DNA of 53,347 nt from positions 1 to 53,347 of the forward strand of contig NZ_KB889703.1 in assembly GCF_000372745.1 (NCBI RefSeq). Direction: 5' to 3'. Under the pieces are notes generated by a model. The model saw only the letters and a program-made list of their open reading frames with translations, was not told where the DNA came from and did no database searches. Positions 24,359-43,624 of the stretch are shown here, in pieces (position 1 is the first letter of the stretch; every line of letters starts with the position of its first letter). The position numbers and the translations under genes were made by a program. Source of the DNA: Embleya scabrispora DSM 41855 (GTDB lineage: Bacteria; Actinomycetota; Actinomycetes; Streptomycetales; Streptomycetaceae).

Positions 24359-24408
24359 CCCACCGCAGGGAGCACCTCGCCAAGCGTCGTCTCGATCTGG
24401 AGTGTGAG

Positions 24409-27400
24409 ATGTCGGACCGCAGCGCCGGACGTATCGAGCTCATGGCAGGGCAGCGGGGCCTGTGGTACGCCCATCGATTCGACCCCGAGAGCCCGATCCT
24501 CAACGAGGGCGAGTATCTCGACATCGACGGCTCCCTCGACATCGGCCTGTTCGAGGAGGCATTGCGGCAGACCGTGTCCGAGGCGGAGACCCTGCGGCTG
24601 AGATTCTTCGAGGACGAGGACGGGCTCCGCCAAGAGGTCGACCCGGACCTCGAACATCGCCTGCACGTCGTCGACGTGAGCGCGGACCGGGACCCGCACC
24701 GGTCCGCGCTGGAGTGGATGAGTGCCGATCTGGCCCGCCCGCGCGACCTCGAACGCGGGCCGCTCGTCACGTTCGCGCTCTTCAAGCTGCACGATCGGCG
24801 TTTCCACTGGTACCAGGGCTGCCACCACATCGTGAACGACGGATTCGGCTTCCCCCTGGTGGTCGCCCGCGTCGCCGAGCTCTACACCGCCCTGTTCGAG
24901 GGCGGCTCGGCCGACGGCGAACCCTTCGAGTCCGTGCAGGCCCTCGTCGACGCCGATGCGGCGTACCGCGCCTCCCCCGCGTTCGACGAGGACCGGCGGT
25001 ACTGGCTCGACCTGCTGGCGGACCGGCCCCGCCCGGTGTCCCTGGCCGGCGGGACGGTGCAAGGACCGGCCCGCGCGCGCCGGCGCGAGACGAGGAACCT
25101 GGACCCCGCGGCGGCCGACCGACTCCGGTCCGCCTGCCGCGGCTTCGGAACCAACCTGGCCGGCCTCGCGGTCGCGGCCACCGCGCTCTTCGCCGCCCGG
25201 GCCACGGGCGAGACGGACGTGGTCATCGGCTTCGCCGTACCCGGCCGCGGCCCCGGCATCGAGCAGACGATTCCCGGAGTCGTGGCCAACGTGGTCCCCA
25301 TCCGCCTGTCGGTGCGTCCCGAGACGACCCTGGCGGACCTGGTCGACCGAAGCGTTGTCCAGGTCCTGGAGGCGATGCGCCACCAGCGATACCGCTATGA
25401 GGACATCCGCCACGACCTCGGCCTCGCCCCGGGGGAGGTGCCCTGGGCGGTCTCCCTGAACGTCATGCCGTTCGACTACCGAGTCACCCTCGCCGGCCGG
25501 CCCTTCGTCGCCCACAACCTCGCCACCGGGCCCTTCGAGGAGATCTCCCTGAACCTGTGGGACATCTCGCGCGACGGCAGCCTGCAACTGGCCGTCGACA
25601 CCGACCCCGACCGGTTCGACGAGCGCACGCACGCCGGCTGCGCGCGCCTGCTCGACGAAGCGCTCGACCGCGTCGTCGACACGCCGGGCAACACCCCGGT
25701 GGGCCGAATCGACGTGCTGCCGGCCGCCGTTCGGCGGCTGCTCCTGACCCGGTGGAACCCGCCGTCCGCACCGCTCCCCCCGCGCACCCTGTCCGAGCTG
25801 CTCGCCGAGCAGGCCCTGCGCACCCCGGAGCGGACCGCGCTGGTGTACGGGGACACCTCCTTGACGTATGCCGAACTCCGGGCCCGGGCGGGGCGGCTGG
25901 CCCGCGTGCTCACCGAGCGGGACGTCGGACCCGAGCGGTTCGTGGCCGTACTGCTGCCCCGCTCCCCGGCGGGCGTGGTGGCCTTCCTGGCCACGCTCAC
26001 CGCCGGAGGCGCCTACGTGCCGATCGATCCCGGGTACCCGCCGGAGCGCATCGCGTACATGCTCGACGACGCGCGACCGGCTCTGGTGGTGACGACGGCG
26101 GACCTGGCGCGGGGACTTCCACCAGGCTGGACCGGGCCACGGTGTCTGGTGGTGGACGAGGTCACCGGCGCCGCCGACCGGACGCCCCTCGCCGAGTTAC
26201 CCGACGCACCCGCGCCCGACCTCCTCCCGGCGCATCCGGCGTACGTGATCTACACCTCGGGGTCGACCGGACGTCCCAAGGGGGTGGTGATCGAACACCG
26301 GTCGATCGCCCGGTACGTGGCGCACGCCGTCCAGGCGTACGGCGTGGGCGAGCAGGACCGTGTCCTGGCGGCGTACGCCTTCACCTTCGACGGTTCCATG
26401 CTCGAACTGTGGGTCTCCCTGGCCGCCGGGGCGCAGATCGTGCTGGCCGACGACGACCAACGGCTCGACGCCGAAGCCCTGCAACGGCTGATGGCCGCCC
26501 ATCGGGTCACCGTCGCGCATCTGTCCCCGGCCCTGATGCATCTGCTGCGGCCCGACGAACTGCCCGCGCTGCGCACGGTGTCCGCCGGTGGCGAGCGCGT
26601 GCCGGCAACGCTCGTGGACCAGTGGGCCGCGGACGGACGAAAGTTCTGGAACGGATACGGACCCACCGAGACCACCGTCGACGCCGCGCAGAAACTGTGT
26701 GTCGCGCCCTCCGACGGCCGATCGCCGCCGATCGGCCCACCGGTCGCCCACGCCGCGGCGTACGTGCTGGACGCCGGTCTGCACCTGCTGCCCCCGGGCG
26801 CCGTCGGCGAGCTCTACGTCGCCGGACCCGGCCTGGCCCGGGGCTATCTGCGGCGCCCCGGCCTCACCGCCGAGCGCTTCGTCCCGAACCCCTTCGGTGC
26901 GCCCGGATCGCGGATGTACCGTACCGGGGACCTGGTGCGCTGGACGTCGGACGGCGATCTGGACTTCGTCGGGCGGGCGGACCGCCAGGTCAAGATCCGC
27001 GGCTTCCGGATCGAGCCGGGCGAGGTGCAGGCCGCCCTGGCCCGGTGCGCCGGCGTCGCCGCCGCGCTCGCCGTGGTGCGCGAGGACCCCGGCACCGACA
27101 AGCGCCTGGTCGGCTACCTGGTGCCCGCGGCGGGAGCGCGGCCGGACATCGCGGCGATCCGTGCGCAGGTGGCCGGCTTCCTGCCCGACTACATGGTGCC
27201 CGCCGCCTTCGTCGTGCTGGACGCGCTGCCGTTGACCACCGCGGGGAAGGTGGACGAGCGCGCCCTGCCTGCACCTTCCCGCCAGGCCCCGAGCGGCGGA
27301 CGCGAGCCCGGCACACCCGCGGAGAAGGCGCTGTGCGCGATCTTCGCCGAGGTGCTGGGCCTGACCTCGGTCGGCGTCGACGACAGCTTCTTCGCGCTGG

Positions 27401-30400
27401 GCGGCCACTCCCTGTCGGCGACGCGCCTGCTCACCCGGATCCGGACCGTGCTCGGCCGGGAGACGGGCATTCGGACCGTGTACGAGGCACCGACCGTCGC
27501 GGCGCTGGCCGCCCGGCTCGGCACGGCCGGCCCGGCCCGGCCCGCACTGGTCCCGGCGGTGCGGCCCGACCGGATCCCGCTGTCGTTCGCCCAGTCCCGA
27601 CTGTGGTTCCTTCGACAATTCCAGGGGCCGGTCGCCACGTACAACGAGGGCATGGGGCTGCGTCTGCTCGGTGCCTTGGACGTCGCCGCCCTGCGCGCCG
27701 CGCTGCGCGACCTGGTGGGCCGGCACGAGGTACTGCGCACCGTGTTCCCGGCCGACGACGGCCATCCGTATCAGCACGTGCTCTCCGCCGACTCGGTTGA
27801 CCTCGACCTGCCCGTGGTGCCGATCGGCCGGGCCGACCTGGCACAGGACCTGGCCCGGGCCACCCGGCGGGCGTTCGACCTGGAGTCGGAGATCCCACTG
27901 CGCGCGCGGTTGGTCGCCCTGTCGCCCAGGGAACACGTCCTGTTGCTGGTGATGCACCACATCGCCGGCGACGCCTGGTCGTTGCGTCCGCTGTTGGCTG
28001 ATCTGGGCCGGGCATACACCGAGCGCGCCGCCGGACGGGAACCCGGCTGGGCGCCGCTCCCGGTCCAGTACGCCGACTACACCCTGTGGCAGCGGGACCG
28101 GCTCGGCTCGGCGGCGGATCCGGACAGTGTCCACGCCGGACAACTGGCCTACTGGCGGCGGGCCCTGGCCGAGCTGCCGCAGGAGATCAGCCTCCCGTCG
28201 GACCGGCCCAGGCCCGCCCTGCCCTCCTACGCGGGCGACTCGGTTCCGCTGGAGATCCCGGCGCACGTGCACCTGGGGCTGGTGAACCTGGCCCGGGCAC
28301 ACGACGCGAGCACGTTCATGGTGCTCCAAGCCGTGCTGGCCGTGCTGCTGTCCAAGCTCGGAGCCGGCGACGACGTCCCCATCGGTGCGCCGGTGGCCGG
28401 ACGTCTGGACGACGCGCTGGAGGAGCTGGTGGGGTTCTTCACCAACACCCTCGTGGTGCGTACGGACCTGTCGGGAGATCCGACCTTCACCGAGTTGCTC
28501 GCCCGGGTGCGGGAAACCTGCCTGGACGCCTACGCCCACCAGGACGTCCCCTTCGAACTGCTGGTCGGCGACCTGGCGGTGGAGCGTTCCCTGGCCCGGC
28601 ATCCCCTGTTCCAGGTGGCGCTCGTGCTGCGCAACACTCGCTCGGGCGAACTGGTGCTGCCCGGCATCGAGGTGCACCCCGAGTCGGTGTGGACCGGCAT
28701 GTCCCCGTTCGACCTGGTGGTGGAGTTCGACGACGAGTCCGCCGGGTCGCAGGGCCCCACCGGACTGAGCGGCGCCCTGCTCTTCGGCACCGACCTGTTC
28801 GACCGGAGCACCGCGTTGTCCATCGCGGACCGGCTGCGGCGCCTGCTCGCACAGGTGGTGAGCGAGCCCACCCGCCGGATCGGCGCGTTCGAACTGTGGG
28901 CGCCCGGCGAGCGCGAGCGGGTGGTGCGGGACTGGAACGACACGGATCACCCGGTCGTCGAGACCACGCTGCCGGCCCTGTTCGAGTCCCGGGTCGAGCA
29001 GGGCCCCGAGCGCACGGCGGTCACCGCGCCCGACGGGAGCATGACGTACCGCGAGTTCAACGCCCGGGTGAACCGGCTGGCGAGGCTGCTGGTGGCCGCC
29101 GGGGTGGGGCCCGAATCCGTGGTCGCCCTGGCCGTGCCGCGCTCGCTCGACCTGGTGGCGGCGGTGTGGGCGGTGCTCAAGGCGGGTGCGGCGTACCTGC
29201 CGCTGGATCCGCAGTATCCGGCCGAGCGGATCGCCTTCCTCCTCGACGACGTCCGGCCGGCCCTGCTGCTGACCACCGTGCGCACGAGTGCGGAACTGCC
29301 GCCCGGCGTCCCGCGCCTGCTCCTGGACGAGCCGCGGACCGGCGCCGCGGCGGCCGCCGAGTCGGCCGACGACCTGCGCGACGACGAACGGACCGGGCCG
29401 TTGTCGGCGCTGCACCCGGCGTATGTGATCCACACGTCCGGCTCGACCGGCAGGCCCAAGGGCGTCACCATGGGTACGGGTGCGATGGTGAACCTGGTGC
29501 AGGCGCACGCCCGGTGGGTCCGGCGGGAGCGGACGGGCATCGGCGGCCCGGTGGCGCAGTTCGCGGCGATCAGCTTCGACGTCTCGGCCTGGGAGATCAT
29601 CGAGACCCTCACCTCCGGCAGGCACCTGGTCGTCCCCGACGACGAGGTCCGGCGCGACCCGGCGGCGTTCACCAGATGGCTGGACAAGCACGAGGTGGAG
29701 CAGTTCTGCGCGCCGAACGTGATGGTGGAGGCGGTGTGCGAGGCGGCCCTGGCCCAGGGGTTGGCGCTGCCGGCACTGCGCGACATCGGACAGGGCGGCG
29801 AGGTGCTGCGACTGACCCCCGGGGTCCGGGAGTTCCTGTCCGCGCGGCCGAAGGTGCGGCTGCACAATCTCTACGGCCCCACCGAGACGCATCTGGTGAC
29901 CGCCTTCTCGCTGCCGGCGGACCTGACGCACTGGGAGTCCTCGACCGCGCCGTTGGGAACGCCGATCTGGAACACCCGTATGTACGTGCTGGATCGGACC
30001 CTGCGGCCGGTTCCGCCGGGGGTGACCGGTGAGTTGTACATCGCCGGCGCGGCCCTGGCCCGCGGGTACTGGAATCGTCCCGGCCTGACCGCCGACCGGT
30101 TCGTGCCGAACCCCTTCGACGGCCCCGGCGAGCGCATGTACCGCACCGGCGATCTGGTGCGCTGGTCCGGCGACGGCCGGTTGGACTATGTGGGTCGCGT
30201 CGACGATCAGGTCAAGGTGCGCGGGTTTCGGATCGAGCCCGGAGAGGTGGAGGTGGTGCTCGCCCGGCACCCGGACGTCGACCGGGTCGCGGTCGTCGTG
30301 CGCGAGGACCAGGCGGGAGAGAAGCGGCTGGTCGCCTACGTCGTGCCGGCCGCGGGCACCCGTCCGGACCCGGTCGCGCTGCGCCGCTTCGTGGCCGAGT

Positions 30401-30828
30401 CGGTGCCGGACTTCCTGGTGCCCACCGCGGTGCTGATCCTGGCCGACCTGCCGCTGACCGTGAGCGGCAAGGTCCATCGCCGGGCGCTGCCCGCCCCGGA
30501 CTTCGCGCAGTTCGCCTCGACCCGGACACCGGCTACGCCGGAAGAGGAGGCCCTGTGTGCGCTGTTCGCGGACGTACTGCGACTGGAGCGGGTCGGACCG
30601 GACGACTCCTTCTTCGACTTCGGCGGTCATTCGCTCCTGGCCACCCGACTGACGAGCCGGATCCGGACCGTGCTGGGCATCGACGTCGAGGTGGGCGCGG
30701 TGTTCGAGGCGCCGACGCCGGCGGCGCTGGCCGCCCGGGTCAAGGGCACGAAACGTTCGCGCCGGCCGGCGTTGCGGCGGATGCCCCGCCCGGGGCCCGC
30801 GGCCGAAGAACGGAGCGACGGCTCGTGA
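24409..30828 (+). CDS. Two-module NRPS: C-A-PCP-C-A-PCP
   Basis: A 2139-residue synthetase. C1 has HHIVNDG at residues 139-145. A1 spans about 460-960 (A3 core [11 protein letters not shown] at 615) and PCP1 carries GGHSL with Ser1001. C2 has HHIAGDA at 1183-1189, with Ala in place of the usual Gly. A2 spans about 1520-2020 ([11 protein letters not shown] at 1675), and PCP2 has Ser2075. Hand-aligned ten-residue codes are DGLHSGGVDK for A1, not matched to a substrate, and DVWFGGLLVK for A2, which aligns with the proline code DVQFIAHVVK but with smaller residues. A2 is therefore proposed to load the 4-alkyl-L-proline. The N-terminal C domain implies an upstream donor, perhaps the free A-PCP protein. 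No TE or E domain. Confidence 0.93.
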
Positions 30829-30862: not shown

Positions 30863-33800
30863 ATGATTCCGCTGTCGTACGCGCAACACCGGATCTGGTT
30901 CCTCAACAAGCTGGACGACGGGACGGGCTACCGCATCCCGTTGGTGTACCGACTCTTCGGGGAGCCGGACGTGGCGGCGCTGCGGGCCGCGTTCACCGAT
31001 GTCCTGGCCAGACACGAGAGCCTGCGCACGGTCTTTCCCGAGTCCGACGGCGCCCCCCGCCAGGTGGTCCTGGAGGACTCCGCGGCCTGGCCCGTCCTGG
31101 CGGTCGAACGAATTCGGCCGCCGGAACTGCCCGGGGTCCTTCGAGCCGCGGGAGCGCACGTCTTCGACCTCACCACGGAAGCGCCCGTGCGGTTCACCCT
31201 GCTCTCGCTCGGACCGGACGAGCACGTCCTGCTGATCCTCCTGCACCACATAGCGGCGGACGGCTGGTCGCGAGAACCACTCCTGCGCGACCTGGCGACC
31301 GCCTATGGGGCGCGGTGCGCGGGGCGGGCGCCGGGCTGGGATCCGCTGCCGGTCCAGTACATCGACTACACCCTGTGGCAGCGTGAACTGCTCGGCGACG
31401 AGGCTGATCCGAACAGTCTGATCAGCGAGCAACTGGCCTACTGGCGCGGCGCCTTGGCCGGCATCCCGGAGAATCTGTCGCTGCCCGTGGACCGGCCTCG
31501 GCCGGCCGCGGCCTCCCATCGCGGCGAGACGATCCCGATGCTGATCGCAGCCCGGACGCACCTGGCCCTGATCGAGCTGGCCAGACAGGAGCGGGTCAGT
31601 CTCTTCATGGTGTTGCAGGCCGGGCTCGCCGCCCTGTTGACCCGGCTGGGCGCCGGCACCGACATCCCCATCGGCTCGGCCGTCGCCGGCCGGTCCGACG
31701 AGGCGATGGACGATCTGGTGGGGATGTGCGTCAACACGCTGGTGCTGCGCACCGACACCGGCGGTAATCCGTCCTTCCAGCAACTCCTGGCCCGGGTACG
31801 GGAGACGGACCTGGCGGCGTACGCACGTCAGGACGTGCCGTTCGAACGGCTCGTCGACGTGCTCGCCCCCTCCCGTTCGGCGGCGTGGAACCCGCTGTTC
31901 CAGGTCATGCTCGTCCTGGAGGACCGCACCACGAACCTCCCCTACCTCCCGGGCCTGCCGGCCACCGAGGAACCGATCGACAACCCGGACGCGAAAGTCG
32001 ACCTGTCGCTCCACCTCCGGGAGCGACAGACCGACGACGGCAGCCCCGACGGCCTGGAAGGCGGCCTGGAGTTCGCCCGCGATCTGTTCGACTCGATCAC
32101 CGCCGAACACATGGTCGAACGGCTGGAGTCGGTGCTCGCGGCCATGGCTGCGGACCCGGACCGCTCCATCGGCGACGTGGAGATTCTCCGGCCCGGTGAG
32201 CGCGGCGCCCTCCTCGGCGCGTGCCGCCCGGCCCCGGCTCGAACCCGGGAGCAGTTGCTCCCCGGGCTCTTCGAGGCGCAGGTGGCGCGTACTCCGGAGG
32301 CGACGGCACTGATTGCCGGGCAGGCACGGACGACCTACCGGGCACTGAACGCGCGGGCCGACCGGCTGGCCCGATGGCTGACCGGCCGGGGTATCGGCGC
32401 CGAGGACATCGTGGCGCTGCTGCTGCCCCGCTCCATCGACGCGGTCGTCGCCATGCTCGGCGTGCTCAAGGCCGGCGCCGCGTACCTGCCGGTGGACCCG
32501 GATTACCCGGCCGCCCGGATCGCCTTCATGCTCACGGACTCGGCGCCCACGCTGCTCATCACCACGGGGAGCGCGGCCGGCCCGGCCGGGGCGGGCACCG
32601 TCCCCGTTCTGGACATCGCCGCCTGGCAGCACGAGGCGGCGGATATGCCGCCCGAAGCGGGACCGACCCGCAGTGCGCGGGCCGGTGTGCCGCACGAGGC
32701 GAACGCCGCCTATGTGATCTACACCTCCGGTTCCACCGGCCGCCCCAAGGGCGTGGTGGTGGAACACCGTTCCCTGGCCGCCTATGTGGAACAGGCACGG
32801 GCGGCGTATCCGAGCGCGGCCGGGTCGAGCCTGGTCCATACCTCGCTGTCTTTCGACCTGACGGTGACCGCCCTGTACACCCCGCTGGTGAGCGGCGGGC
32901 ACGTGCGGTTGGACGAGTTGGCCGGGCCCCACACCGGCCCGCTCCGCCACTCCCTCTTGGACGTCACGCCGAGCCATCTCGACCTGATGGCGGCGATGCC
33001 GGTGGATCCGTCGCCGACCCGATGCCTGCTGATCGGCGGTGAGGCGTTGCGCGGGGAGTCGCTGGCCAGGTGGCGGGAGCAACACCCGGACGTCGTGGTC
33101 CACAACCTCTACGGCCCCACCGAGGCGACCGTGGACTGTGCCCGGTTCCGGCTCGACCCGGGCGAGCCCACACCGCCCGGACCGGTTCCCATCGGCCGCC
33201 CCCACGAGGGCCTGAGCATGTACGTCCTGGACGAGCGGCTGCGCCCGGTGCCGAGCGGCGTCGCGGGCGAACTGTACGTGGCGGGTCCGGCCCTCGCGCG
33301 AGGCTATCTGGGCCGGTTCGTGCTGACGGCCGAGCGTTTCGTGGCGGATCCGTTCGGCCGGGCCGGTACCCGGATGTATCGCACCGGTGATCTGGTCCGC
33401 CTGCGCTCCGACGGCGAACTCGAATACGTCGGGCGGGCGGACCACCAGATCAAATTGCGCGGCCACCGCATCGAGCCGGGCGAAGTGGAGGCCGCGCTGC
33501 TGGCCCTGCCCGGGATCTCCCGGTGCGCGGTCGTGGTCCACGAGCGTTCTTCCGACGACAGACGCCTGATCGGGTATGTCGTCCCGACCGGTCCGGTCGC
33601 GAGCGTGAGCCCGGCAGCCGTCCGGGCGGCCCTCGCCGACGCACTGCCCGCGCCGATGGTCCCCTCGGCCGTCGTGGTCCTTGCCCAACTGCCGGTCACG
33701 CCACACGGCAAGCTCGACCGCGCCGCTCTTCCGCCGCCGGAGACCGACGCACCGGTCGGTGACCGGCGGGCGCCGCGTACCCCGGCGGAGGCGTCGCTGT

Positions 33801-34744
33801 GCCAGGTGTTCGCCGAGGTGATCGGCGTCGACACGGTCGGCATCGACGACGGATTCTTCGAGTTGGGCGGGCACTCGCTGCTCATGCCGCGGTTGCTCAC
33901 CCGGGCCAAGGAGGCCCTGGGGCTGGAACTGACCCTGAAGCAGTTGTTCGTGCGACCCACCGTGGCGCAGCTGCTCCGGGACCAGCCCGCGACGGCGGAC
34001 CTGCTCGGCCCGCTGATCCGCCTACGCGGCGGAACGGGTCGGCCGCTGTGGTGCATCCATCCGGGGAGTGGCCTGGGCTGGAGTTACGCGGGCCTGCTGC
34101 CGTACATTCCGGCCCGACACCCGGTGTACGCCCTCCAGGCGCGCGGTCTCGACGGCTCCACCGCCCTGGCCGGCAGTTTCCCCGAGCTCGTCCGGGACTA
34201 CTGCGCGCGGATCGTCGACATCCAACCGAACGGGCCGTATCTGCTTGCCGGTTGGTCCTTCGGCGGAGCCGCGGCCCATGCCGTCGCGGTCCGACTGCGC
34301 GCGTCGGGGCATGCGGTCGCTCTGCTCGCCGCCATCGACGCCTGGCCGGCGGGCGCCCGTACCGATCGCGACACCGAAGAGCCCTCCGACGTCCGGCTGG
34401 TGGCCTTCGACGGCGGGGAGGCGATGGCGGCCCTGGACGAGGAGTCGGTGGCCGCGCTGCTGCGGGCCACCGGCAACAACATCCGCCTCCTGCAGGATCC
34501 GGGGATCGTCCCGGAGTTCTTCGACGGCTCGCTGCTGCTCTTCGAGGCCGCGCCCGGCGGCCGAGGAACGCAGGCCGGGCAACGGTGGCGGTCCTGCATC
34601 GGCGGGGACATCGCGGTGGTGCCGGTGGACAGCGAGCACCTGCGGATGATGCGCCCCGCGGCGCTGCGCGTGATCGGACCGGTCCTCGCCCGGGCGTTGC
34701 GATCGACGATGCCCCTGTCGCCGGCGATCAAGGAGCGGATCTGA
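30863..34744 (+). CDS. Terminal NRPS module: C-A-PCP-TE
   Basis: A 1293-residue synthetase that adds the last residue and releases the peptide. C has HHIAADG at residues 128-134. The A domain spans about 470-965 ([11 protein letters not shown] at 620). The PCP has GGHSLL with Ser1005. The thioesterase has GWSFGG with Ser1132 and probable His1259 (SEHLRMM). The hand-aligned adenylation code is DLTDLGLVDK; acidic residues at code positions 4 and 9 suggest a basic side chain, perhaps a guanidino or diamino acid, which would fit the amidinotransferase. The gene begins 34 bases after the first synthetase. Whether release is by hydrolysis or cyclisation cannot be seen. Confidence 0.93.
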
Positions 34745-34745
34745 C

Positions 34746-36605
34746 ATGTGCGGCATCACCGGGTCCATGGTCCTGCACAACGCTCGACCGACGACGGCCG
34801 AGGTACTGGAGCGGATGAGCGATACGTTGACGCACCGCGGCCCGGACGCGGCGGGCACCCTGATCCAGGACGGCGTGGCGCTGGCCTGCCGCCGGCTGAG
34901 TCTGGTCGACCTCGCCGGCGGCGGGCAGCCGATGTCCAACGAGGACGGCAGCGTCACGATGGTGTGCAACGGCGAGATCTTCAACCACGTCGAGCTGCGC
35001 GCCCTGTTGCTCGCCCGGGGCCACCGATTCGAGTCATCCTGCGACGTCGAGGTGATCCTGCACCTCTACGAGGACGAGGGGCCCGAGCTGTTGGCGCGAC
35101 TCAACGGGCAGTTCGCGTTCGCGATCCACGACCGGCGCAGGCGACAGCTCTTCCTCGCGCGCGACCACGCCGGGATCGCTCCCCTGTACTACACGGACAC
35201 CGGCGGTCACTTCGTCTTCGGATCGGAGATCAAGTCGATCCTGGAACACCCCGGCGTACCGCGCGACGTGGACCTCACCGGTCTGGACCAGGTCCTCACC
35301 TTCCCCGGGCTGGTGAGTCCGCGCACCATGTTCCGCGGCATCGAGAGCGTGCGCAACGGCCACTACCTGATCGTGCGGGACGGTGTCGTCACCGACCGGT
35401 GCTACTGGGCCCTGGGCTACCCCCGCGAGGACGTCGCGCACCGGCCCGACGAGTTCTACCCGGAACACCTGCGTGAACTGCTCACCCGGGCCGTTCGGCT
35501 CCGGATGCGGGCCGACGTCGAGGTCGGTTTCTATCTCAGCGGCGGCCTCGACTCCTCGCTGATCGGCGCGCTGGCGTCGCAATCGGGGCCCCCCGCCCAC
35601 TCCTTCTCCATCACCTTCCCCGACGCGGCCATCGACGAGTCCGGGTATCAGCGCCTGATGGCGACCAAGGTGGGGTCCGTGCACCACGAGGCGGTCTTCA
35701 CGGAGCAGGACACCGTCGCCGAACTCCAGCGCATGGTGCGCCATGCCGAGTGCCCGGTGAAGGAGACCTACAACACCTGCTCGCTGGTCCTGTCGGCGCT
35801 CGCGCGAGAACACGGCGTCAAGGCGATCCTGACCGGCGAGGGGGCCGACGAACTCTTCGGCGGGTATCCCGGGTACCGGTTCGACGCGGGTGGGCGCGGC
35901 CCGGTGGTGTCGGGTGATCCGCTGGAGGACGCCTTCGAGGACGACCTTCGCGCCCGGCTGTGGGGCGACCCGGAGCTCTTCTACGAGCGCCGGTACCACG
36001 CGTGGCGGGACGCGAAGTTCGAGCTCTACTCCGAGCAGGCCCGGGCCGCCTTCGCGGAGTTCGACTGTCTGCACCACCCGGTCGTCGACCACGAGCGCCT
36101 GGTGGGCAGGCCGCGGCTCAGTCAGCGCTCCTATCTGGACTTCACCCTGCGGCTGTCGGACCACCTGTTGACCGACCACGGGGACCGGATGGCCCTGGCC
36201 AATTCCGTGGAGGCCCGCTACCCGTTCCTCGACCGCGCCGTGCTCGATTTCGCCACGCAGGTTCCCAACCGGCTCAAGGTGGGCGCGCGGGGCGAGAAGC
36301 TCGTGCTGAAACAGGCCGCGGAGGGACTGGTCCCGCCGGAGATCATCCGCCGGGAGAAGTACGGGTTCCGCGCGCCCGCGAGCCCTCGGCTGCTCCGGCG
36401 CAACGTCGAATGGGTCGACGACCTGCTGTCCCCGGCGCGCATCGCCCGTCAGGGCTACTTCGATCCGGCGGTCGTGGAGCAGTTGCGCTCGCGCAGCCTG
36501 GACGCGGGCTTCGACCTGCACCCGCACCTGGACGACGATCTGTTGCTCGTCGTCCTGACGTTCGGAATTCTGCTGGACACCTTCAACCTTCCCGGTCACG
36601 TGTGA
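34746..36605 (+). CDS. asnB: Asparagine synthase (glutamine-hydrolysing) homologue
   Basis: A 619-residue class II glutamine amidotransferase. The glutaminase nucleophile Cys2 is intact (MCGITGS), with THRGPD and CNGEIFNH in the first domain. The synthetase domain has the PP-loop SGGLDSSL (about residue 262) and GEGADELFGGY. Class II enzymes adenylate a carboxylate and transfer ammonia. In peptide clusters such homologues can amidate a substrate or catalyse other ATP-driven amide formation. The gene starts one base after the NRPS stop, so it belongs to the operon. Substrate unknown: supply of L-asparagine, amidation of the peptide, or ammonia for the PP-loop protein two genes downstream are all possible. 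Confidence 0.92.
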   Translation: MCGITGSMVLHNARPTTAEVLERMSDTLTHRGPDAAGTLIQDGVALACRRLSLVDLAGGGQPMSNEDGSVTMVCNGEIFNHVELRALLLARGHRFESSCDVEVILHLYEDEGPELLARLNGQFAFAIHDRRRRQLFLARDHAGIAPLYYTDTGGHFVFGSEIKSILEHPGVPRDVDLTGLDQVLTFPGLVSPRTMFRGIESVRNGHYLIVRDGVVTDRCYWALGYPREDVAHRPDEFYPEHLRELLTRAVRLRMRADVEVGFYLSGGLDSSLIGALASQSGPPAHSFSITFPDAAIDESGYQRLMATKVGSVHHEAVFTEQDTVAELQRMVRHAECPVKETYNTCSLVLSALAREHGVKAILTGEGADELFGGYPGYRFDAGGRGPVVSGDPLEDAFEDDLRARLWGDPELFYERRYHAWRDAKFELYSEQARAAFAEFDCLHHPVVDHERLVGRPRLSQRSYLDFTLRLSDHLLTDHGDRMALANSVEARYPFLDRAVLDFATQVPNRLKVGARGEKLVLKQAAEGLVPPEIIRREKYGFRAPASPRLLRRNVEWVDDLLSPARIARQGYFDPAVVEQLRSRSLDAGFDLHPHLDDDLLLVVLTFGILLDTFNLPGHV

Positions 36606-36631: not shown

Positions 36632-38464
36632 ATGGCGTTCGAACCGATCCAGTCGCTTGTCGCCCGCGCGATCGACCGCTTCCCCGACCGAGTCGCCGTA
36701 CAGACCGCGCACGGCTCGCTGCGCTATCGCGAACTGGACCAACGCGTCGACGCCGTCGCGGCCGAGCTGTATCGGTGCGGAGCACGCGGCGCCTCCGTCG
36801 TCGCGGTCCTCGCCGGCGACCGGGCCGAGCTGACCGCGGCCCTGCTCGCCGTCCTGCGGCTGGGCGGTGTGGTGGTCCCCCTCGACGTGGGCACCCGGCC
36901 GGATCGGCTGGGCTGGATGCTGCGCGAGGCGGACCCCGATCTCCTGGTCGTCGGCGCCGACGACGGCGACCTCGCGGAGGACGTGCGCGACACGTGCGAC
37001 CGGGCCACCCTGGTCGATCTCGGCACGGTCAAGGACCGACCCGGGAACGACTACCCGCCCCACGTGCCGGCGCCGGACGATCCCTGCTACCTGTTCTTCA
37101 CCTCCGGCTCCACCGGCCGGCCCAAGGGGATCCTCGGCCGGCTGAGCGCGGTGGACCACTACATCCGCTGGGAGGCGGAGCTGCTCGGCGCCGGTCCCCA
37201 ATGGCGGGTGGGCCAGCTGATCTCGCCCGCGTTCGACGCCGTGCTGCGCGACCTGCTCCTGCCGTTGAGCGTGGGCGCGACGGTATGCGTGCCGGCCGAG
37301 GACGTCCGGCTCGACCCGGTCGCCCTGTGCCGGTGGCTGGACCGGGAACGGATCGATCTGATCCACTGCGTGCCCTCGGTCTTTCGCGCCCTGGCGGGCG
37401 CGATCGACACGGTCCGGCCGGGGTTCGAGGCGCTGAAGTGCGTGGCCCTGTCCGGCGAGCGCGTGCTGCCCGCCGACGCCGCCGGCTGGTTCGACCGCTT
37501 CGGCGAGCGGATCCGGCTGCTGAACCTCTACGGGCCCTCGGAAACCACCATGACGAAGACCTTCCACTTCGTCACCGCCGCCGACGCCCGGGGCAGGTCC
37601 GTCCCGATCGGGCGCCCGATGCCCGACACCGTCGTATTGCTGCTCGACGAACGCGGCCGGGAGGTACCGCCGGGGCGGGTCGGCGAGATTCACCTGCGTA
37701 CGGCCTACCGCAGCCTCGGGTACCACCGCAGGCCGCAGGAGACCGAACGCGCCTTCATCGCCGACCCCACCCGGCCCGGCGACGACGAAGTCGTCTACCG
37801 GACCGGTGACTTCGCCCGCCTGCTGCTCGACGGCACGCTCGACTTCCTCGGCCGCCGGGACCGACAGGTCAAGGTCGGCGGCGTGCGGGTGGAGTTGGAC
37901 GGGGTGGAGCAGCTCCTGCGCGAGGACCCGTCGGTCGCCGAGGCGGCCGTCGTGTCGGTCGAGCCGGACGACGCCCCGCCGTACCTGTGCGCGTTCGTCG
38001 AGACCGGCACCGGGACGGACCCCGAGGAGCTTCGCTCCCGGCTGAGCGAGCATCTGCGCGCACACCTGCCGGACGGCGCGATCCCGGGGGTGATCGTGCC
38101 GCTGGAGTTCATCCCGCGCACCATCAGCGGCAAGATCGACCGCAAGGCGCTCACCGTGCCCGTGCGGTCCCCCGCCCGACCGGACGCGGACGCCGTCGCA
38201 CCGCGCACCGCCACCGAACGCACGATCGCCGGGATCTGGGCGCGTACGCTGCCGGCCCCGGTCGACGACGTGCACACCCGGTTCTTCGACGTGGGCACCT
38301 CGCTGGCCGTGATCTCGGTACTGGCGCGGCTGACCGAGGAGTTCGGGGTGTCCGTCCCGCTGGCGGACTTCCTGGCGAACCAGACGATCGAGGGCCTGTC
38401 GCACCTGGTCGAGCGCTTGCTGCTCGCCGACGACGACGCCGACGACGACCTCTTCGGGAGCTGA
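36632..38464 (+). CDS. Free-standing A-PCP didomain
   Basis: A 610-residue adenylation plus carrier protein. The A domain has [11 protein letters not shown] (about residue 156), LYGPSET, YRTGDFARL and the catalytic lysine region ISGKIDRKAL. The hand-aligned code DARHASLMTK begins with Asp, so an alpha-amino acid is expected, but I cannot name it. The PCP has DVGTSL with Ser557. The start ATG at 36632 follows AAAGGAAA. Such didomains hold an amino acid as a thioester for tailoring, then hand it to a C domain. Here the tailoring candidates are the following PP-loop protein and the acyl-CoA dehydrogenase at the operon end; the acceptor may be the N-terminal C domain of the first NRPS. Confidence 0.88.
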   Translation: MAFEPIQSLVARAIDRFPDRVAVQTAHGSLRYRELDQRVDAVAAELYRCGARGASVVAVLAGDRAELTAALLAVLRLGGVVVPLDVGTRPDRLGWMLREADPDLLVVGADDGDLAEDVRDTCDRATLVDLGTVKDRPGNDYPPHVPAPDDPCYLFFTSGSTGRPKGILGRLSAVDHYIRWEAELLGAGPQWRVGQLISPAFDAVLRDLLLPLSVGATVCVPAEDVRLDPVALCRWLDRERIDLIHCVPSVFRALAGAIDTVRPGFEALKCVALSGERVLPADAAGWFDRFGERIRLLNLYGPSETTMTKTFHFVTAADARGRSVPIGRPMPDTVVLLLDERGREVPPGRVGEIHLRTAYRSLGYHRRPQETERAFIADPTRPGDDEVVYRTGDFARLLLDGTLDFLGRRDRQVKVGGVRVELDGVEQLLREDPSVAEAAVVSVEPDDAPPYLCAFVETGTGTDPEELRSRLSEHLRAHLPDGAIPGVIVPLEFIPRTISGKIDRKALTVPVRSPARPDADAVAPRTATERTIAGIWARTLPAPVDDVHTRFFDVGTSLAVISVLARLTEEFGVSVPLADFLANQTIEGLSHLVERLLLADDDADDDLFGS

Positions 38465-38465
38465 C

Positions 38466-40925
38466 ATGACCGACCAGCCACTGGACGCCGAGCAGACCGA
38501 GTCCGTCGAACGCCGGGTGCGGACGGCCGTGTTGGACCAGGACGGCGTCCTCGACTGCGCCGTCGTGCTCAACGAGGCCGACCCCGCGGCGGCCGGCGCC
38601 CGCGCCTGTGTCCGGTGCGGGATCAGCGCCGCGTACCCGGGACTGCGCTTCGACCCGGACGGGGTCTGTTCGCTGTGCGCGCGCTACGCCGCCCATCGAT
38701 CGGCGATGCACGCCTACTTCCGTGACCCACGGGAGCTGGCGCCGCGGCTGCGCGAGGCCGCGCGAGGGCGCGGATCGGACTACGACTGCCTGCTGCTGTT
38801 CAGTGGCGGCAAGGACAGCACGTATGTGCTCTACCAGCTCGTGGGACTGGGTCTGCGGGTGATGACCTTCACCTTCGACAACGGGTTCATCTCGCGGACC
38901 GCGCTGCGCAACGTCGAGACCGTCACCGCCGAACTGGGCATCGAACACGTCACCGCCACCCACGCCGAGCAGAAGCGGATCTTCCTGAACTCGCTCCAGG
39001 AGCACAAGAGCGTGTGCAACGGGTGCTTCCGCTCCCTCCTGGACCTGAGCACCGAACTCGCGCACCAGCGCGACATCCCCACGGTGGTCACCGGGCTCTC
39101 CCGCGGCCAGATCATGGACGAGCGGCTGTCCTGGTTCCACGAGCAGGGCATCTTCGACGTGGCCGAGATCGAGGAGAAGCTGCGGCTGGGCCGGGAGGTG
39201 TACCACCGGGCCGCGGGCACGGTCGACGCCGCCGCGGTGAACGCGGTCCAGGTCGTCGACTACTTCCGCTACTCGGCGGTGACGAAGGAGGACGTGCGAG
39301 CCTTCCTGCGCGAGCGCTCGTCGTTCTGGGCGCAGCCCACCGATACGGGGTTCTGCAGCTCGAACTGCATGATCAACGATGTGGGCACCTACGTTCACGC
39401 CGCGGAGCGCGGTTTCCACAACTACGAGGCGCCGACCCGCTGGGAGGTACGGCTCGGGCATCTGGACGTCGCCGAGGCGGACGCGGAGCTGCGCGCCCCG
39501 GTGGAGACCGCGCAGGTGAAACGGATGCTGGCCAGGATCGGCTATCCGGACCCGGCCGACGCCGACCGGACGGGTGCCCGGCTGGCGGTCTACTACGTTG
39601 CCGACCGAAGCGCGTCGGGCGACCGGCTCGCGGCCGCGGTGGCCGATGCCCTGCCGCCCGCACTGGTACCGGCGCAGTGGGTGCAGGTGGCGGAGATCCC
39701 CAGGGTCGCGGGCGCCGTGGATCAGTGGGCTCTGCGCGGGATGCACCGCCCGAAGGCCCCGGGCTCGCGGGGCGGGGGCGTCACCGCGGACGCGGATTCC
39801 GATCGCTCGGTCGCGGTCCGTCCGGTACAGCGTCGGATTCTCGATCGGGATCCGGTCCGGGCGGCGCACCGGGCCCGAGCCCTGTTCCTGACCTCGGAGG
39901 CCGGTTTCCCGGTCACCGACCTGAAGCGGGTGTGGCTGCAACTGCTTTTGCACCACGAGGCGTTGCGGCTGCGGTTCGGCCACGGGGATCAGGGCTGGCG
40001 GCAGTCCCGGGGCGGCCTCGGCGGTGCGGTCCACGTCTCGCGGGTGGACCTCACCGACCAGGACCCGGGCGCGCAGGGGCAGGTGCTGCGTCGGCTCACC
40101 GACCGGATGCGGGCCCGGCTGCACGTCGATCGGGGTCCGCTGCTGCGGGCCGCGGTGGTCGACCGGGGTACCCGGCCGGCGGGTCTGTTGATCGTGGTGC
40201 ACGAACTGGCCGCGGATGTCGAGTCCTGGCGGGTGCTGTTGGCGGACCTGGCCCTGGGGCTGGGACAGCTCCAGGCGGGCTCGGACGTCCGGTTGCCGCC
40301 TGCCGCGTCGTTCCTGGACCACCCGGCCGAGCTTGCCGACGTCGAGGACGAGGCGGGCCCCGAGGTCGCCGGGGCCGGCTGTGTCCTCCCGGGTTCGCCC
40401 GCACCCGAGCCGATCGCCGAGGAGCCGCTCGAAGCGCGCTGCCCGGTGCGCGCGGCGACGGCCCGCGACGTCGCCGCTGCGATCGCGCACGTGCTGGTCG
40501 AGGAGTTCGGCGGCGGGCGACTGGTCGCGGACGTCCTCGATCACACCACGCGCAGGCCCGCGGCACGGGTGATCGGTCCGCTGGCCGAAGCGGACCGCTG
40601 GGTGGTGACCCCACTCGCGCGGGGAGCGAGCGTCGTACGGGTCGCGGGAGCGGCCGAGCCGGCCCGGGTGCGCTACGAACACTTCGGCGATCCGGCCGCC
40701 GCGCTGCTTCCGTCGGGGGTGGCCTGGACGCTGCGCGACACGGTGTGGCGGGACTTCGCCGGGCCGGGGCACCCGGGCGACACCGATGCGACGATCACCG
40801 GTGTCGTCGACGCCGGCGAGCTCGTGCTCACCTGGTGGTGTCCCGCCTCCGTGGGCACGCGGCTGGCGGCGGCCCACATCCCCGAGCGCGTCGCGCAGCG
40901 GCTGATCGGGGAGCAGGCCGGCTGA
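38466..40925 (+). CDS. PP-loop ATPase domain inside an adenylation C-subdomain, fused to an epimerization-like domain
   Basis: An 819-residue chimera. Residues 12-40 (ESVERRVRTAVLDQDGVLDC) look like the first strands and helix of an adenylation C-subdomain. From about 46 an N-type ATP-pyrophosphatase is inserted: Cys48/51 and Cys68/71 as a CxxC pair, SGGKDST at 113-119, CNGC at 184-187, and Cys297/301. It resembles WbpG/PseA-type sugar amidotransferases and sulfurtransferases. At about 371-428 the adenylation subdomain resumes (RLAVYYVAD... LPPALVPAQWVQVAEIP) but ends AGAVDQWAL, without the catalytic Lys. From about 447 a condensation/epimerization-like domain follows, with HELAADVESW (579-588) replacing HHxxxDxxSW. 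It starts one base after the A-PCP gene. Its role is unknown: amidine or thio-group formation on a carrier-bound amino acid is a guess. Confidence 0.75.
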   Translation: MTDQPLDAEQTESVERRVRTAVLDQDGVLDCAVVLNEADPAAAGARACVRCGISAAYPGLRFDPDGVCSLCARYAAHRSAMHAYFRDPRELAPRLREAARGRGSDYDCLLLFSGGKDSTYVLYQLVGLGLRVMTFTFDNGFISRTALRNVETVTAELGIEHVTATHAEQKRIFLNSLQEHKSVCNGCFRSLLDLSTELAHQRDIPTVVTGLSRGQIMDERLSWFHEQGIFDVAEIEEKLRLGREVYHRAAGTVDAAAVNAVQVVDYFRYSAVTKEDVRAFLRERSSFWAQPTDTGFCSSNCMINDVGTYVHAAERGFHNYEAPTRWEVRLGHLDVAEADAELRAPVETAQVKRMLARIGYPDPADADRTGARLAVYYVADRSASGDRLAAAVADALPPALVPAQWVQVAEIPRVAGAVDQWALRGMHRPKAPGSRGGGVTADADSDRSVAVRPVQRRILDRDPVRAAHRARALFLTSEAGFPVTDLKRVWLQLLLHHEALRLRFGHGDQGWRQSRGGLGGAVHVSRVDLTDQDPGAQGQVLRRLTDRMRARLHVDRGPLLRAAVVDRGTRPAGLLIVVHELAADVESWRVLLADLALGLGQLQAGSDVRLPPAASFLDHPAELADVEDEAGPEVAGAGCVLPGSPAPEPIAEEPLEARCPVRAATARDVAAAIAHVLVEEFGGGRLVADVLDHTTRRPAARVIGPLAEADRWVVTPLARGASVVRVAGAAEPARVRYEHFGDPAAALLPSGVAWTLRDTVWRDFAGPGHPGDTDATITGVVDAGELVLTWWCPASVGTRLAAAHIPERVAQRLIGEQAG

Positions 40926-40926
40926 G

Positions 40927-41718
40927 GTGGCGCGCTCACGCACCCTCGGTGTGCTCGGTGGGATGGGACCGGCGGCGACGGCGGAGTTCCTGCGGCTGCT
41001 GGCCGTGCGCGTCGCGGCCGGCAGCGACCAGGAGCACCCCCGGATCCTGATGCTGTCCGAGCCGGGCATCCCGGACCGGACCGCCGCGCTGCTCAGGGGC
41101 GACGACGCACCGCTCCTGCCGATCCGGCAGGCGCTGTTCACCCTTGCCGACTGGGGCGCGGAGCTGCTCGCGGTGCCCTGCAACACCGCGCACGTCTACA
41201 TCGATCGATTCCGCAGCCGACTGCCGGTGCCCCTGGTGCACATCGTGGAGGCGAGCGTGCGGGCCGCCGAGGTCGCCAGTCCCGACGGGGCCTGGTTGAC
41301 GGCGACCGCGGGTACCGTCGCCGGCGGCATCTATCAGCGCTATGCGCAGCACCGGGGATACCGACTCCTGCTCCCCCACGAGGCGCTCCAGCAGCGCATC
41401 CACGCCGCCACCGTGCTGGTGAAGGCGAACCGGCTGCCGGCTGCCGGCGCGACCCTGGGTTCGGCGGTCCACGAGCTGCTGCGCATTCGGTGCCTGCCGG
41501 TGATCAGCGCCTGTACCGAACTCCCGCTCGCCTACGCGCACAGCGGGCTGCCGGCGGAATTCCAGGTGTCCAGCGTCGACGCGCTGGCGTCGGCCTGCGC
41601 GCACGCCCTGTACCCCCACCGCGGACCCGTACCGGGCCTGCTCTCGTCGACGGCCCGACGGGCGGTCGCCGGGTCCGGCTCCGGGTCCACGTCCGATCCC
41701 CCCGAAGGAGCACGATGA
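40927..41718 (+). CDS. Aspartate/glutamate racemase-family protein
   Basis: A 263-residue PLP-independent racemase homologue. Both catalytic cysteines are visible: AVPCNTAH (Cys85) and VISACTELPLAY (Cys196), and it opens with LGVLGGMGPAATAEF, typical of the aspartate racemase branch. The GTG at 40927 lies one base after the preceding stop. The end overlaps the acyl-CoA dehydrogenase start (ATGA). It may supply a D-amino acid for one adenylation domain. This would fit the absence of an intact epimerization domain in the synthetases. The actual substrate (Asp, Glu or another amino acid) is not determined by sequence. Confidence 0.88.
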   Translation: MARSRTLGVLGGMGPAATAEFLRLLAVRVAAGSDQEHPRILMLSEPGIPDRTAALLRGDDAPLLPIRQALFTLADWGAELLAVPCNTAHVYIDRFRSRLPVPLVHIVEASVRAAEVASPDGAWLTATAGTVAGGIYQRYAQHRGYRLLLPHEALQQRIHAATVLVKANRLPAAGATLGSAVHELLRIRCLPVISACTELPLAYAHSGLPAEFQVSSVDALASACAHALYPHRGPVPGLLSSTARRAVAGSGSGSTSDPPEGAR

Positions 41719-42869
41719 CACGCTCACGCCTGTCGAAGGAACGCCGGCTGCTGCGCGAGACGGTCGCCGACTTCGCCCGCGCCAAGGTGGCTCCGGTGAT
41801 CGCCGATATCTACCGACGCGAGGAGTTTCCCTACGAACTGGTCGCCGCCATGGGCCGCATGGGCTTGTTCGGACTGCCCTTCGAGGAACGCTACGGCGGC
41901 ATGGGCGGGGATGTGTTCACCCTGTGTCTGGCCATCGAGGAACTGGCCAGAGTGGACTGCTCGGTGGCCGTCGCACTGTCCGCGGGCGTGACGCTCGGCG
42001 CGATCCCCATCCATCGGTTCGGCACCGCGGCACAGAAGGAACGCTGGCTCCCCGCCCTGTGCACCGGCGAGCGGATCGCCGGCTTCGGGCTCACCGAACC
42101 CGGCGGCGGGACCGACACGGCGGCGGCCCGCACCAAGGCGGCACTCGACGGCGACGAATGGGTGATCAACGGCAGCAAGGCGTTCATCACCAACTCCGGC
42201 ACCGACATCACCAGCCTGGTCACGGTGACGGCGGTGACCGGTACCCGCGCCGACGGCGCCAAGGAGATCTCCGCGCTCGTCGTGCCGTCGGGCACCCCGG
42301 GCTTCACGGTGGCGCCGTCGTACTCCAAGGTGGGCTGGTGCGCCTCGGACACCCACGAACTCGGTTTCGCCGACTGCCGGGTGCCGGCCGAGCACCTGCT
42401 CGGCGAACGCGGCCTGGGCATCGCGCAGTTCATGTCGGTGCTGGACGAGAGCAGGATCGCGATCTCGGCCGTCGGAGCGGGGATGGCCCAGGGCTGCGTG
42501 GACGAGTGTGTGCGCCATGCCAAGGAGCGGACGGCGTTCGGGCAGCGCATCGGCGCGTACCAGTCGATCCAGTTCAAGATCGCCGACATGGAGACGCGCG
42601 CCCACACCGCACGCCTGGCCTACTACTCGGCTGCGGCCTCGATGCTGCGCGGCGAATCCTTCTCGAAGGAGGCGGCGATGGCCAAGCTGGTCTCCTCCAG
42701 GGCGGCGATGGACAACGCCAGGGACGCGACCCAGATCTTCGGTGGCTCCGGCGTGATGAACGACAGCCCCGTGGGCCGCTTCTACCGCGACGCCAAGATC
42801 CTGGAAATCGGCGAAGGCACCACCGAGGTACAACAGATGATGATCGCCAGGCACCTTGGCTTGTCCTGA
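41715..42869 (+). CDS. Acyl-CoA dehydrogenase-family flavoenzyme
   Basis: A 384-residue flavin dehydrogenase with the usual segments: FGLTEPGGGTDTAAARTKA, WVINGSKAFITNSGTD, RTAFGQRIGAYQSIQFKIAD and ATQIFGGSGVMND. The catalytic base Glu367 is in IGEGTTEVQQ, the position used by short-chain enzymes. In peptide pathways related proteins oxidise aminoacyl-PCP thioesters, for example prolyl-PCP to pyrrole. The free A-PCP protein three genes upstream is the likely carrier, so alpha,beta-desaturation of that amino acid is proposed. An ordinary fatty-acid role is less likely given the four-base overlap with the racemase gene (ribosome-binding site GAAGGAG). It is the last gene of the operon. Confidence 0.9.
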   Translation: MTRSRLSKERRLLRETVADFARAKVAPVIADIYRREEFPYELVAAMGRMGLFGLPFEERYGGMGGDVFTLCLAIEELARVDCSVAVALSAGVTLGAIPIHRFGTAAQKERWLPALCTGERIAGFGLTEPGGGTDTAAARTKAALDGDEWVINGSKAFITNSGTDITSLVTVTAVTGTRADGAKEISALVVPSGTPGFTVAPSYSKVGWCASDTHELGFADCRVPAEHLLGERGLGIAQFMSVLDESRIAISAVGAGMAQGCVDECVRHAKERTAFGQRIGAYQSIQFKIADMETRAHTARLAYYSAAASMLRGESFSKEAAMAKLVSSRAAMDNARDATQIFGGSGVMNDSPVGRFYRDAKILEIGEGTTEVQQMMIARHLGLS

Positions 42870-43601: not shown

Positions 43602-43624
43602 GAGTCACGCGCCAGGATCGCGGC

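What the first reader, a model, noticed from the sequence alone, without database searches (positions are those of the whole stretch)
38466..40925. PP-loop ATPase inserted in an adenylation C-subdomain and fused to a degenerate epimerization domain
The two ends of an adenylation C-subdomain flank a PP-loop ATPase with CxxC pairs and SGGKDST, at the sort of site where methyltransferase domains interrupt adenylation domains. The catalytic Lys is lost (AGAVDQ), and the epimerization active site has become HELAADVESW. The protein follows a free A-PCP gene by one base. It may act on a PCP-bound amino acid with nitrogen or sulfur chemistry.
Basis: partly seen in the sequence, partly recalled or inferred. 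Interest (0 to 1): 0.9.

Follow-up and report, generated by a model that had tools for sequence, protein, structure and literature searches.

The report
Detached nitrile-making domain beside an NRPS
The gene encodes a relative of the enzyme domain that turns a carrier-bound asparagine into a nitrile in the antibiotics albicidin and cystobactamid, but here the domain has left its usual host protein and probably works on a neighbouring carrier protein with a different loading code.

Summary
The 819-aa protein (38466-40925) has two A-domain C-subdomain pieces flanking a PP-loop ATPase, then an epimerization fold without its catalytic His, one base after a free A-PCP gene. The PP-loop part is not an unknown insertion: it belongs to the AMDH (aminomutase/amide dehydratase) family of CysH (cystobactamid) and AlbIV (albicidin); CysH is shown in print to convert PCP-bound Asn to beta-cyanoalanine or isoasparagine. 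Of 80 loci examined (best of 136 found), 59 carry AMDH inside an A domain, and 58 of 58 readable ones have an Asn-type code. The other 21, all Actinomycetota, are split like the window: a separate A-PCP with another code (DARH...), a dedicated asnB (20 of 21; 0 of 59 embedded) and usually an Asp-type racemase (17 of 21; 0 of 59). Split and embedded AMDHs are probably sister clades. The cassette occurs in NRPS clusters and in clusters that look like enediyne clusters. Best reading: a trans-acting AMDH that dehydrates an amide on the free A-PCP to a nitrile, with the dead E fold as carrier dock. Substrate and product are untested. New variant of a known kind.

The parts
38466..40925 (+). split AMDH protein, 819 aa: A_C remnant / AMDH (PP-loop) / A_C remnant / E-like domain
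   Evidence: ORF; homologs; models
38487..38573 (+). N-terminal half of the interrupted adenylation C-subdomain (helix 8-23, strand 28-35)
   Evidence: alignment with embedded homologs; model; weak on its own
38604..39545 (+). AMDH domain (residues about 47-360): CxxC..CxxC 38607-38678, SGGKDS 38802-38819, CNGC 39015-39026, DTGFCSSNC 39342-39368
39555..39740 (+). C-terminal half of the interrupted adenylation C-subdomain; A10 Lys replaced by Ala at 39714-39716
39804..40922 (+). epimerization-fold domain without catalytic His (HELAADVESW at 40200-40229)
   Evidence: Pfam; PDB sequence hits; Foldseek; motif survey; HMM
36632..38464 (+). free-standing A-PCP, A10 SGKIDR and PCP Ser present, code DARHASLMT (tenth position not read)
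   Evidence: Pfam; codes; A10; PCP
34746..36605 (+). asnB-type glutamine-hydrolysing asparagine synthetase, one of three related copies in the genome
   Evidence: NCBIfam TIGR01536 460.8 bits (cut-off 267.1); paralogs 38-42% over part of the length; linkage
40927..41718 (+). Asp/Glu-family amino acid racemase
   Evidence: Pfam; TIGR00035 126.1 bits (cut-off 93.1), CuyB 170.4 bits below its cut-off 190; linkage
41715..42869 (+). acyl-CoA dehydrogenase family protein; a relative at 60% identity or more lies in 9 of 21 split loci (start codon chosen by eye)
30863..34744 (+). NRPS C-A-PCP-TE of the same cluster
   Evidence: Pfam
24145..30828 (+). NRPS with two C, two A and two PCP domains of the same cluster (ORF; true start further in)
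   Evidence: Pfam, NCBIfam

Best explanation
The protein is a split, trans-acting member of the AMDH (aminomutase/amide dehydratase) family. Its ancestor probably sat inside an A domain between motifs A8 and A10; in this actinobacterial lineage the large A subdomain and the PCP of that module are gone, leaving an A_C remnant around the AMDH and an E fold behind it. The neighbouring free A-PCP loads an amino acid. AsnB supplies its side-chain amide, on free aspartate or on the carrier, and the racemase probably sets its configuration because the E fold is dead. The E fold docks the loaded PCP. The AMDH uses ATP at SGGKDS to activate the amide oxygen and eliminates AMP, giving a carrier-bound nitrile (beta-cyanoalanine type); less likely it shifts the amino group to give isoasparagine. 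The product is handed to an NRPS or, in enediyne-type clusters, to another acyl acceptor. Shown here: family membership by sequence, architecture, gene linkage, loss of A10 Lys and of the E catalytic His, changed A code. Shown in print for CysH: dehydration and aminomutation of PCP-bound Asn. Inferred: in-trans action, docking role, substrate, stereochemistry, nitrile outcome.
For: AMDH of the Roseovarius NRPS, 40% identical to the window's, lies in an A domain with A10 Lys and code DLTKVGEVG. The tree puts 23 split and 60 embedded AMDHs together, apart from 2 WbuX-like outgroup rows (SH-aLRT 100), with a stand-alone A-AMDH-PCP of Xanthomonas albilineans (L079, presumably AlbIV) among the embedded. 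CxxC..CxxC, SGGKDS and GLS[RK]GQ are present in 83 of 83 AMDH rows, C[NQ]GC in 79 of 83. In print CysH dehydrates loaded Asn and CysH without the domain does not (PMC7966384, passages). Linkage: asnB 20 of 21 split, 0 of 59 embedded; racemase 17 of 21, 0 of 59, judged in the DNA held. In 394 family genomes an A-PCP match at E 1e-110 or better occurs in the same 6 genomes as the AMDH. The PCP Ser is kept in 23 of 23. The E-like profile's best hits outside split proteins are mostly E domains behind GGDS-type PCPs, several in AMDH modules. An AMP-imidate route from amide to nitrile is proposed for the AS-like enzyme PesC and likened there to the auranthine and preQ0 enzymes (PMC13060819, passages).
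Against: The partner A domain does not carry the Asn code, and what DARHASLMT selects is unknown, so Asn is a guess. The split clade sits on a long branch (2.04) and differs in a conserved motif (DTGFCSSNC against DTGRSTNC), so the reaction could have changed. That the E fold docks the PCP is inferred. L037 and L043 have no racemase in about 10-11 kb on either side. The window's own N-flank is weak, and Pfam's AMP-binding_C misses the window protein. No product of any split cluster is known to me. The pdb_via library was unavailable, and model coordinates could not be measured.
Confidence: 0.6

Rival explanations
1. Same enzyme family acting in trans, but the main outcome is aminomutation (isoasparagine, a beta-amino acid) rather than a nitrile.
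For: CysH's AMDH does both; isomerisation is favoured after beta-hydroxylation by CysJ, and some isoasparagine linker still forms when cysJ is deleted. Split cassettes occur in enediyne-type clusters that also build a beta-amino acid, though these have their own tyrosine aminomutase.
Against: In CysH dehydration is seen mainly when CysJ is absent, and no isoasparagine albicidin is known. I did not search the split loci for a CysJ-like hydroxylase.
Confidence: 0.17
2. The AMDH fold has changed reaction: it uses AsnB-derived ammonia or the activated amide to make an amidine, a cyclised unit or another amide-derived group on a non-Asn residue chosen by the DARHASLMT code.
For: Changed A code in 24 of 24 split A domains read (21 loci, window, L009, sister-genome L012); extra Cys in the split motif, shared with the 2 WbuX-like outgroup rows; asnB upstream in 20 of 20 split loci that hold enough DNA.
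Against: The motifs shared by the AMDH family are kept; WbuX score 102.3 is half its cut-off 203.2.
Confidence: 0.13
3. A sulfur-inserting PP-loop enzyme (TtuA/LarE-like) that makes a thioamide or thioester on the PCP.
For: Foldseek finds YcfA, TtuA and LarE structures behind the N-acetyl sugar amidotransferase; several Cys pairs.
Against: The sequence kin are AMDHs. No sulfur carrier or desulfurase is named among the listed genes of L009 (that gene table is incomplete, and other loci were not searched for one). Pfam's best PP-loop hit is QueC.
Confidence: 0.05
4. Non-catalytic remnant or fusion artefact.
For: A10 Lys and the E catalytic His are lost.
Against: PP-loop and Cys motifs are kept in 23 of 23 split rows over at least six actinobacterial families, with conserved gene order.
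Confidence: 0.03

Closest known systems
AMDH domain of CysH (cystobactamid), Gross et al. 2021, PMC7966384 (abstract, introduction and passages read)
   Same: PP-loop domain with SGGKD, tied to an A domain and acting on its PCP-bound amino acid
   Different: CysH is one protein with A, AMDH and T domains and favours Asn; here AMDH is a separate protein fused to a dead E fold, beside an A-PCP with another code, asnB and a racemase. The paper states that the homologs it found were all inserted in Asn-specific A domains.
AlbIV/Alb04 ANH-like domain (albicidin), reviewed in PMC8949500 (passages read)
   Same: 342-aa SGGKD extension on a stand-alone A-T module thought to feed cyanoalanine in trans
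   Different: part of an Asn-activating A-T protein; L079 (X. albilineans) AMDH is 40% identical to the window's. That L079 is AlbIV rests on organism and architecture only.
WbpG/WbuX N-acetyl sugar amidotransferase (TIGR03573; structure 8wex)
   Same: best solved structure for the PP-loop part by sequence and by Foldseek; same Cys-pair layout in the 2 outgroup rows
   Different: half the family cut-off score; outside the AMDH clade
QueC/ToyM nitrile synthetase
   Same: PP-loop, Pfam QueC hit above gathering score over 74 residues; makes nitriles via an amide (PMC11611611, passage)
   Different: acts on a deazaguanine acid and makes the amide itself; no NRPS parts (recalled)
Methyltransferase-interrupted A domains
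   Same: a tailoring domain inside an A domain (recalled)
   Different: different inserted fold; here the host A domain is only a remnant

Membership tests
AMDH (CysH/AlbIV) domain family | sequence kinship: groups with embedded AMDHs apart from WbuX-like proteins | tested here: met
   a tree with embedded as one clade has lnL 17 higher than the free quick tree, p-AU 0.826. CysH itself was not available; X. albilineans L079 stands for AlbIV
AMDH (CysH/AlbIV) domain family | SGGKD ATP motif | tested here: met
   (83 of 83 rows have SGGKDS); the seven published core motifs are in a supplement that was not read
AMDH (CysH/AlbIV) domain family | inserted in a complete A domain | tested here: not met
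   only C-subdomain remnants remain, A10 Lys lost; hence 'split variant', not standard member
AMDH (CysH/AlbIV) domain family | partner A domain Asn-specific by code | tested here: not met
   DARH[AL][SA][LM]MT in the window and 21 of 21 split loci; DL[TS]K[IVM]GE[VI][GA] in 58 of 58 readable embedded loci. Positions mapped from recalled GrsA numbering; the tenth residue K was appended by the script, not read
AMDH (CysH/AlbIV) domain family | dehydration or aminomutation of PCP-bound Asn | not testable with these tools
   needs biochemistry
WbuX N-acetyl sugar amidotransferase (TIGR03573) | score above curated cut-off | tested here: not met
   102.3 against 203.2 bits
QueC (PF06508) | full-length match | tested here: not met
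   24.7 bits, above the cut-off 22, but only profile positions 2-75 of 210
Functional A domain | N-subdomain and A10 Lys | tested here: not met
   no AMP-binding hit in the protein; A10 Lys is Ala
Functional epimerization domain | E fold | tested here: met
   the top Foldseek hits are entries with E domains (TycA, PvdL, TycB, GrsA, BacC), besides CmnI
Functional epimerization domain | catalytic second His of HHxxxDG | tested here: not met
   absent in 20 of 20 readable split rows of 22

The most novel reading that the evidence does not exclude
A two-ATPase relay on one carrier: the A-PCP loads a D- or L-aspartate-type acid, AsnB amidates it on the carrier and the detached AMDH dehydrates it, so that a carboxylate becomes a nitrile by two separate PP-loop enzymes. 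This would be the first trans-acting AMDH and the source of an unrecognised cyano-amino-acid unit in enediynes and actinobacterial peptides.
Probability: 0.22. Interest if true: 0.78.

Novelty: new variant of a known kind. Interest (0 to 1): 0.6.

Why it matters
AMDH chemistry is known from one characterised enzyme (as far as my searches show) whose mechanism is open, and the domain normally sits in an A domain. A naturally detached form, some members with no A-domain remnants left, offers an enzyme that can be tested against any loaded carrier. It also marks a family of actinobacterial clusters, enediyne-type ones included, that probably make nitrile or isoasparagine-type units not yet described, and asnB plus racemase give a handle to find them.

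Tried and rejected
WbuX amidotransferase: rejected as family because of the low score and the tree. Sulfur transfer: only fold-level resemblance. Split AMDH nested inside the embedded clade: the first quick tree left this open; a tree with embedded as one clade fits better, so I describe sisters, though p-AU over 0.05 does not prove a clade. Origin of the E-like domain from AMDH-module E domains in particular: not shown, because the best outside hit (L083|+|2104) is an E domain of another protein; lower in the list come ordinary condensation domains. Assigning the A code to Ser, Asp or D-Asn: no support beyond partial resemblance from memory. The 'swapped flanks' control was uninformative. In one search, 2 further genomes of the phylum matched at 44% and were not classified. 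Of the 136 relatives only the best 80 were returned; the other 56 were not examined. The held DNA reaches 9.5 kb or more on both sides in 31 of 59 embedded loci and at least 4 kb upstream in 47 of 59, so absence of asnB and racemase there means absence from the DNA held. With the AMDH, CysH/AlbIV and cyanoalanine/isoasparagine terms, the listings showed one paper on the domain's biochemistry that I recognised (Gross et al.) and one review; nothing on a split form was seen in the rows listed. Most subscription papers are not in that library.
Full report
OBSERVATION. The ORF at 38466-40925 encodes 819 aa and starts one base after the A-PCP stop at 38464. Pfam finds a condensation-superfamily domain (2.7e-13, residues 471-625) and a QueC-type PP-loop (24.7 bits, cut-off 22, residues 108-181). 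NCBIfam's best hit is WbuX, N-acetyl sugar amidotransferase, at 102.3 bits against a cut-off of 203.2. The genome holds one copy. The neighbours are asnB, A-PCP, an Asp/Glu-family racemase and an acyl-CoA dehydrogenase, with two NRPS genes upstream.

WHAT THE INSERT IS. A tblastn of plasmid records gave 11 records; the three strongest were a Streptomyces homolog (52%, L009) and two Roseobacter-group plasmids at 39%. In Roseovarius the same PP-loop domain sits inside an A domain, right after motif A8 and before the rest of the C-subdomain, with A10 Lys present. A scan of the genome-contig collection gave 136 relatives, of which the best 80 were returned. Among the 80 loci, 59 (L044-L102) have the domain in frame inside an A domain, 70-136 bases after the core, and 21 (L023-L043, all Actinomycetota) have it on a separate ORF. 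Five of the 59 embedded loci are also Actinomycetota (L058, L092, L093, L097, L099). One embedded case is a stand-alone A-AMDH-PCP of Xanthomonas albilineans (L079, frame of 972 aa), which fits AlbIV of albicidin; it groups with loci of a Myxococcales genome and Rugamonas (SH-aLRT 100). This is the AMDH domain: CysH dehydrates loaded L-Asn to beta-cyano-L-alanine (+96 instead of +114), CysH without AMDH does not, and the domain can instead act as an asparaginyl aminomutase (PMC7966384: abstract, passages and introduction read). The review PMC8949500 (passages) describes the domain in Alb04 as a 342-residue ANH-like extension.

HOW THE SPLIT FORM DIFFERS. Gross et al. report that the homologs they found were all inserted in A domains with Asn specificity by code. 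In my set, the nine code positions read (mapped from recalled GrsA numbering; the tenth, K, was appended by the script) are DL[TS]K[IVM]GE[VI][GA] in 58 of 58 readable embedded loci of 59 (L098 is truncated) and DLTKVGEVG in Roseovarius, but DARH[AL][SA][LM]MT in 21 of 21 split loci, the window, its sister genome (L012) and L009. The window's free A domain keeps A10 (SGKIDR), and the carrier Ser is present in 23 of 23 split A-PCPs. asnB (45% identity or more) is found in 20 of 21 split loci (L024 holds only 1.6 kb upstream) and in 0 of 59 embedded; the racemase in 17 of 21 and 0 of 59 (L029 and L034 end soon after AMDH; L037 and L043 lack it in the DNA held). In four of the 17 it lies about 9.5 kb upstream on the other strand, and in L040 about 7.9 kb upstream. 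The embedded loci hold 9.5 kb or more on both sides in 31 of 59 and at least 4 kb upstream in 47 of 59. The window asnB is one of three related copies in its genome; the others are 38-42% identical over part of the length. In 394 genomes of the family, 8 match the protein at 1e-20: 6 are AMDH-type and 2 are WbuX-like at 30-31%; the A-PCP at 1e-110 occurs in the same 6.

EVOLUTION. In the quick tree the 23 split rows form one clade (SH-aLRT 100) on a long branch (2.04). Holding the 60 embedded rows together gives a log-likelihood 17 higher than that tree, p-AU 0.826. A motif agrees: DTGFCSSNC in 23 of 23 split rows, DTDSCSTNC in both outgroup rows, DTGRS[TS]NC in 59 of 60 embedded. So the two forms are best seen as sisters. 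Because 17 of 22 split rows (window plus 21) still carry A C-subdomain flanks at the same place, the common ancestor was probably embedded. Five loci (L030, L033, L036, L038, L042) have lost the flanks: they start close to the Cys motif and show no match; L009 looks the same by inspection. The flanks are therefore dispensable. The window's A10 Lys is Ala; Lys survives in 1 of 17 split rows with flanks (L027), counted by eye.

FOLD. AlphaFold2 with 38 sequences gave mean pLDDT 85.5, pTM 0.61 for the whole protein and 88.5, pTM 0.80 for residues 1-432. Helix 8-23 and strand 28-35, then the PP-loop domain, then strand 373-379, a helix from 385 and a strand at 404-407 give the order expected for an A C-subdomain. 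By sequence, a profile of the same alignment hits A C-subdomains over positions 364-430 (LgrA and others), with no significant match for the N-flank. Pfam's AMP-binding_C is found in 30 of the 38 rows at E 0.1 or better, but not in the window's. For the full model, 13 of the first 15 Foldseek hits are entries that contain an E domain; ranks 7 and 10 are CmnI.

THE E-LIKE DOMAIN. The second His of HHxxxDG is missing in 20 of 20 readable split rows (L029 and L039 not readable). A profile of split E-like domains finds, outside split proteins, mostly E domains that follow GGDS-type PCPs, then condensation domains at lower scores. Twelve of the 59 embedded loci carry A[AMDH]-PCP and an E-like match on one protein; an HHxxxD motif was picked out in 9 of the 12. 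The simplest history is loss of the A N-subdomain and the PCP from such a module, but the closest outside E domain belongs to another protein, so this is inference. I propose that the dead E fold now docks the PCP of the free A-PCP and that the racemase replaces its function.

CONTEXT. L009 is a Streptomyces plasmid whose genes include tyrosine aminomutase and SgcJ/EcaC near the cassette and, about 28 kb from the AMDH gene, DUF1702, CRTAC1, an enediyne biosynthesis protein and a type I PKS. L030 is Streptomyces sp. CB00455, listed among predicted 9-membered enediyne strains with beta-amino acid and benzoxazolinate genes (PMC5181780, one passage); that its enediyne cluster is this locus is inferred from shared genes. 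L033, L036, L038 and L042 share 8 to 13 of the 31 L009 genes tested, the four cassette genes included. The window and L023 lie beside NRPS genes instead. So one cassette appears to serve different product classes.

MECHANISM. Most likely: amide activation by ATP and elimination of AMP, giving a nitrile on the carrier. Such an AMP-imidate route is proposed for PesC and likened to the auranthine and preQ0 enzymes (PMC13060819, passages and part of the reference list). The amide would come from the cassette's AsnB. Whether AsnB works on free or carrier-bound acid, which enantiomer is used, and what the A domain selects are open. Aminomutation is the main rival. CysH is reported dark brown, hinting at a metal; the Cys pairs kept in 83 of 83 rows are candidates for its site.

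NOVELTY. The insert and its chemistry are known; the detached form with a new A code, AsnB, racemase and a dead E fold was not met in the searches listed under Tried and rejected. That makes it a new variant of a known kind.

Noticed in passing
window 43090-43923 (-): Reading frames look like a chitinase-type (GH18) C-terminal piece next to a piece with a YADD reverse-transcriptase motif, as if a degraded group II intron gene borders the cluster (recognised by eye).
   Followed up: no
window 23252-24355 (+) and 21960-23009 (-): An amidinotransferase-like protein (motifs recalled; no Pfam or NCBIfam hit at the limits used) beside a methyltransferase with weak similarity to 2-ketoarginine methyltransferase (65.3 bits, cut-off 425): guanidino chemistry may belong to the same cluster.
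   Followed up: partly
L010 and L011: Roseovarius and Pseudohalocynthiibacter plasmids share identical protein accessions around the place of an embedded-AMDH NRPS next to polysaccharide genes, pointing to recent exchange between genera.
   Followed up: no
L044-L102: Embedded AMDH modules occur in many phyla (Bacteroidota, Acidobacteriota, Planctomycetota, Gemmatimonadota, Chloroflexota and others), beyond the albicidin and cystobactamid producers, often with an acyl-CoA dehydrogenase and a second A domain some 3-6 kb upstream.
   Followed up: partly
L005 and L039, contig end: The AMDH gene of this genome runs into a long poly-glycine (G-run) stretch at the contig end, probably an assembly artefact.
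   Followed up: no
L007, L008: Two genomes of the window's family carry WbuX-like PP-loop genes (30-31% identical) with CGSC and GW[TS]PGQ motifs, used as outgroup; their own context was not studied.
   Followed up: no
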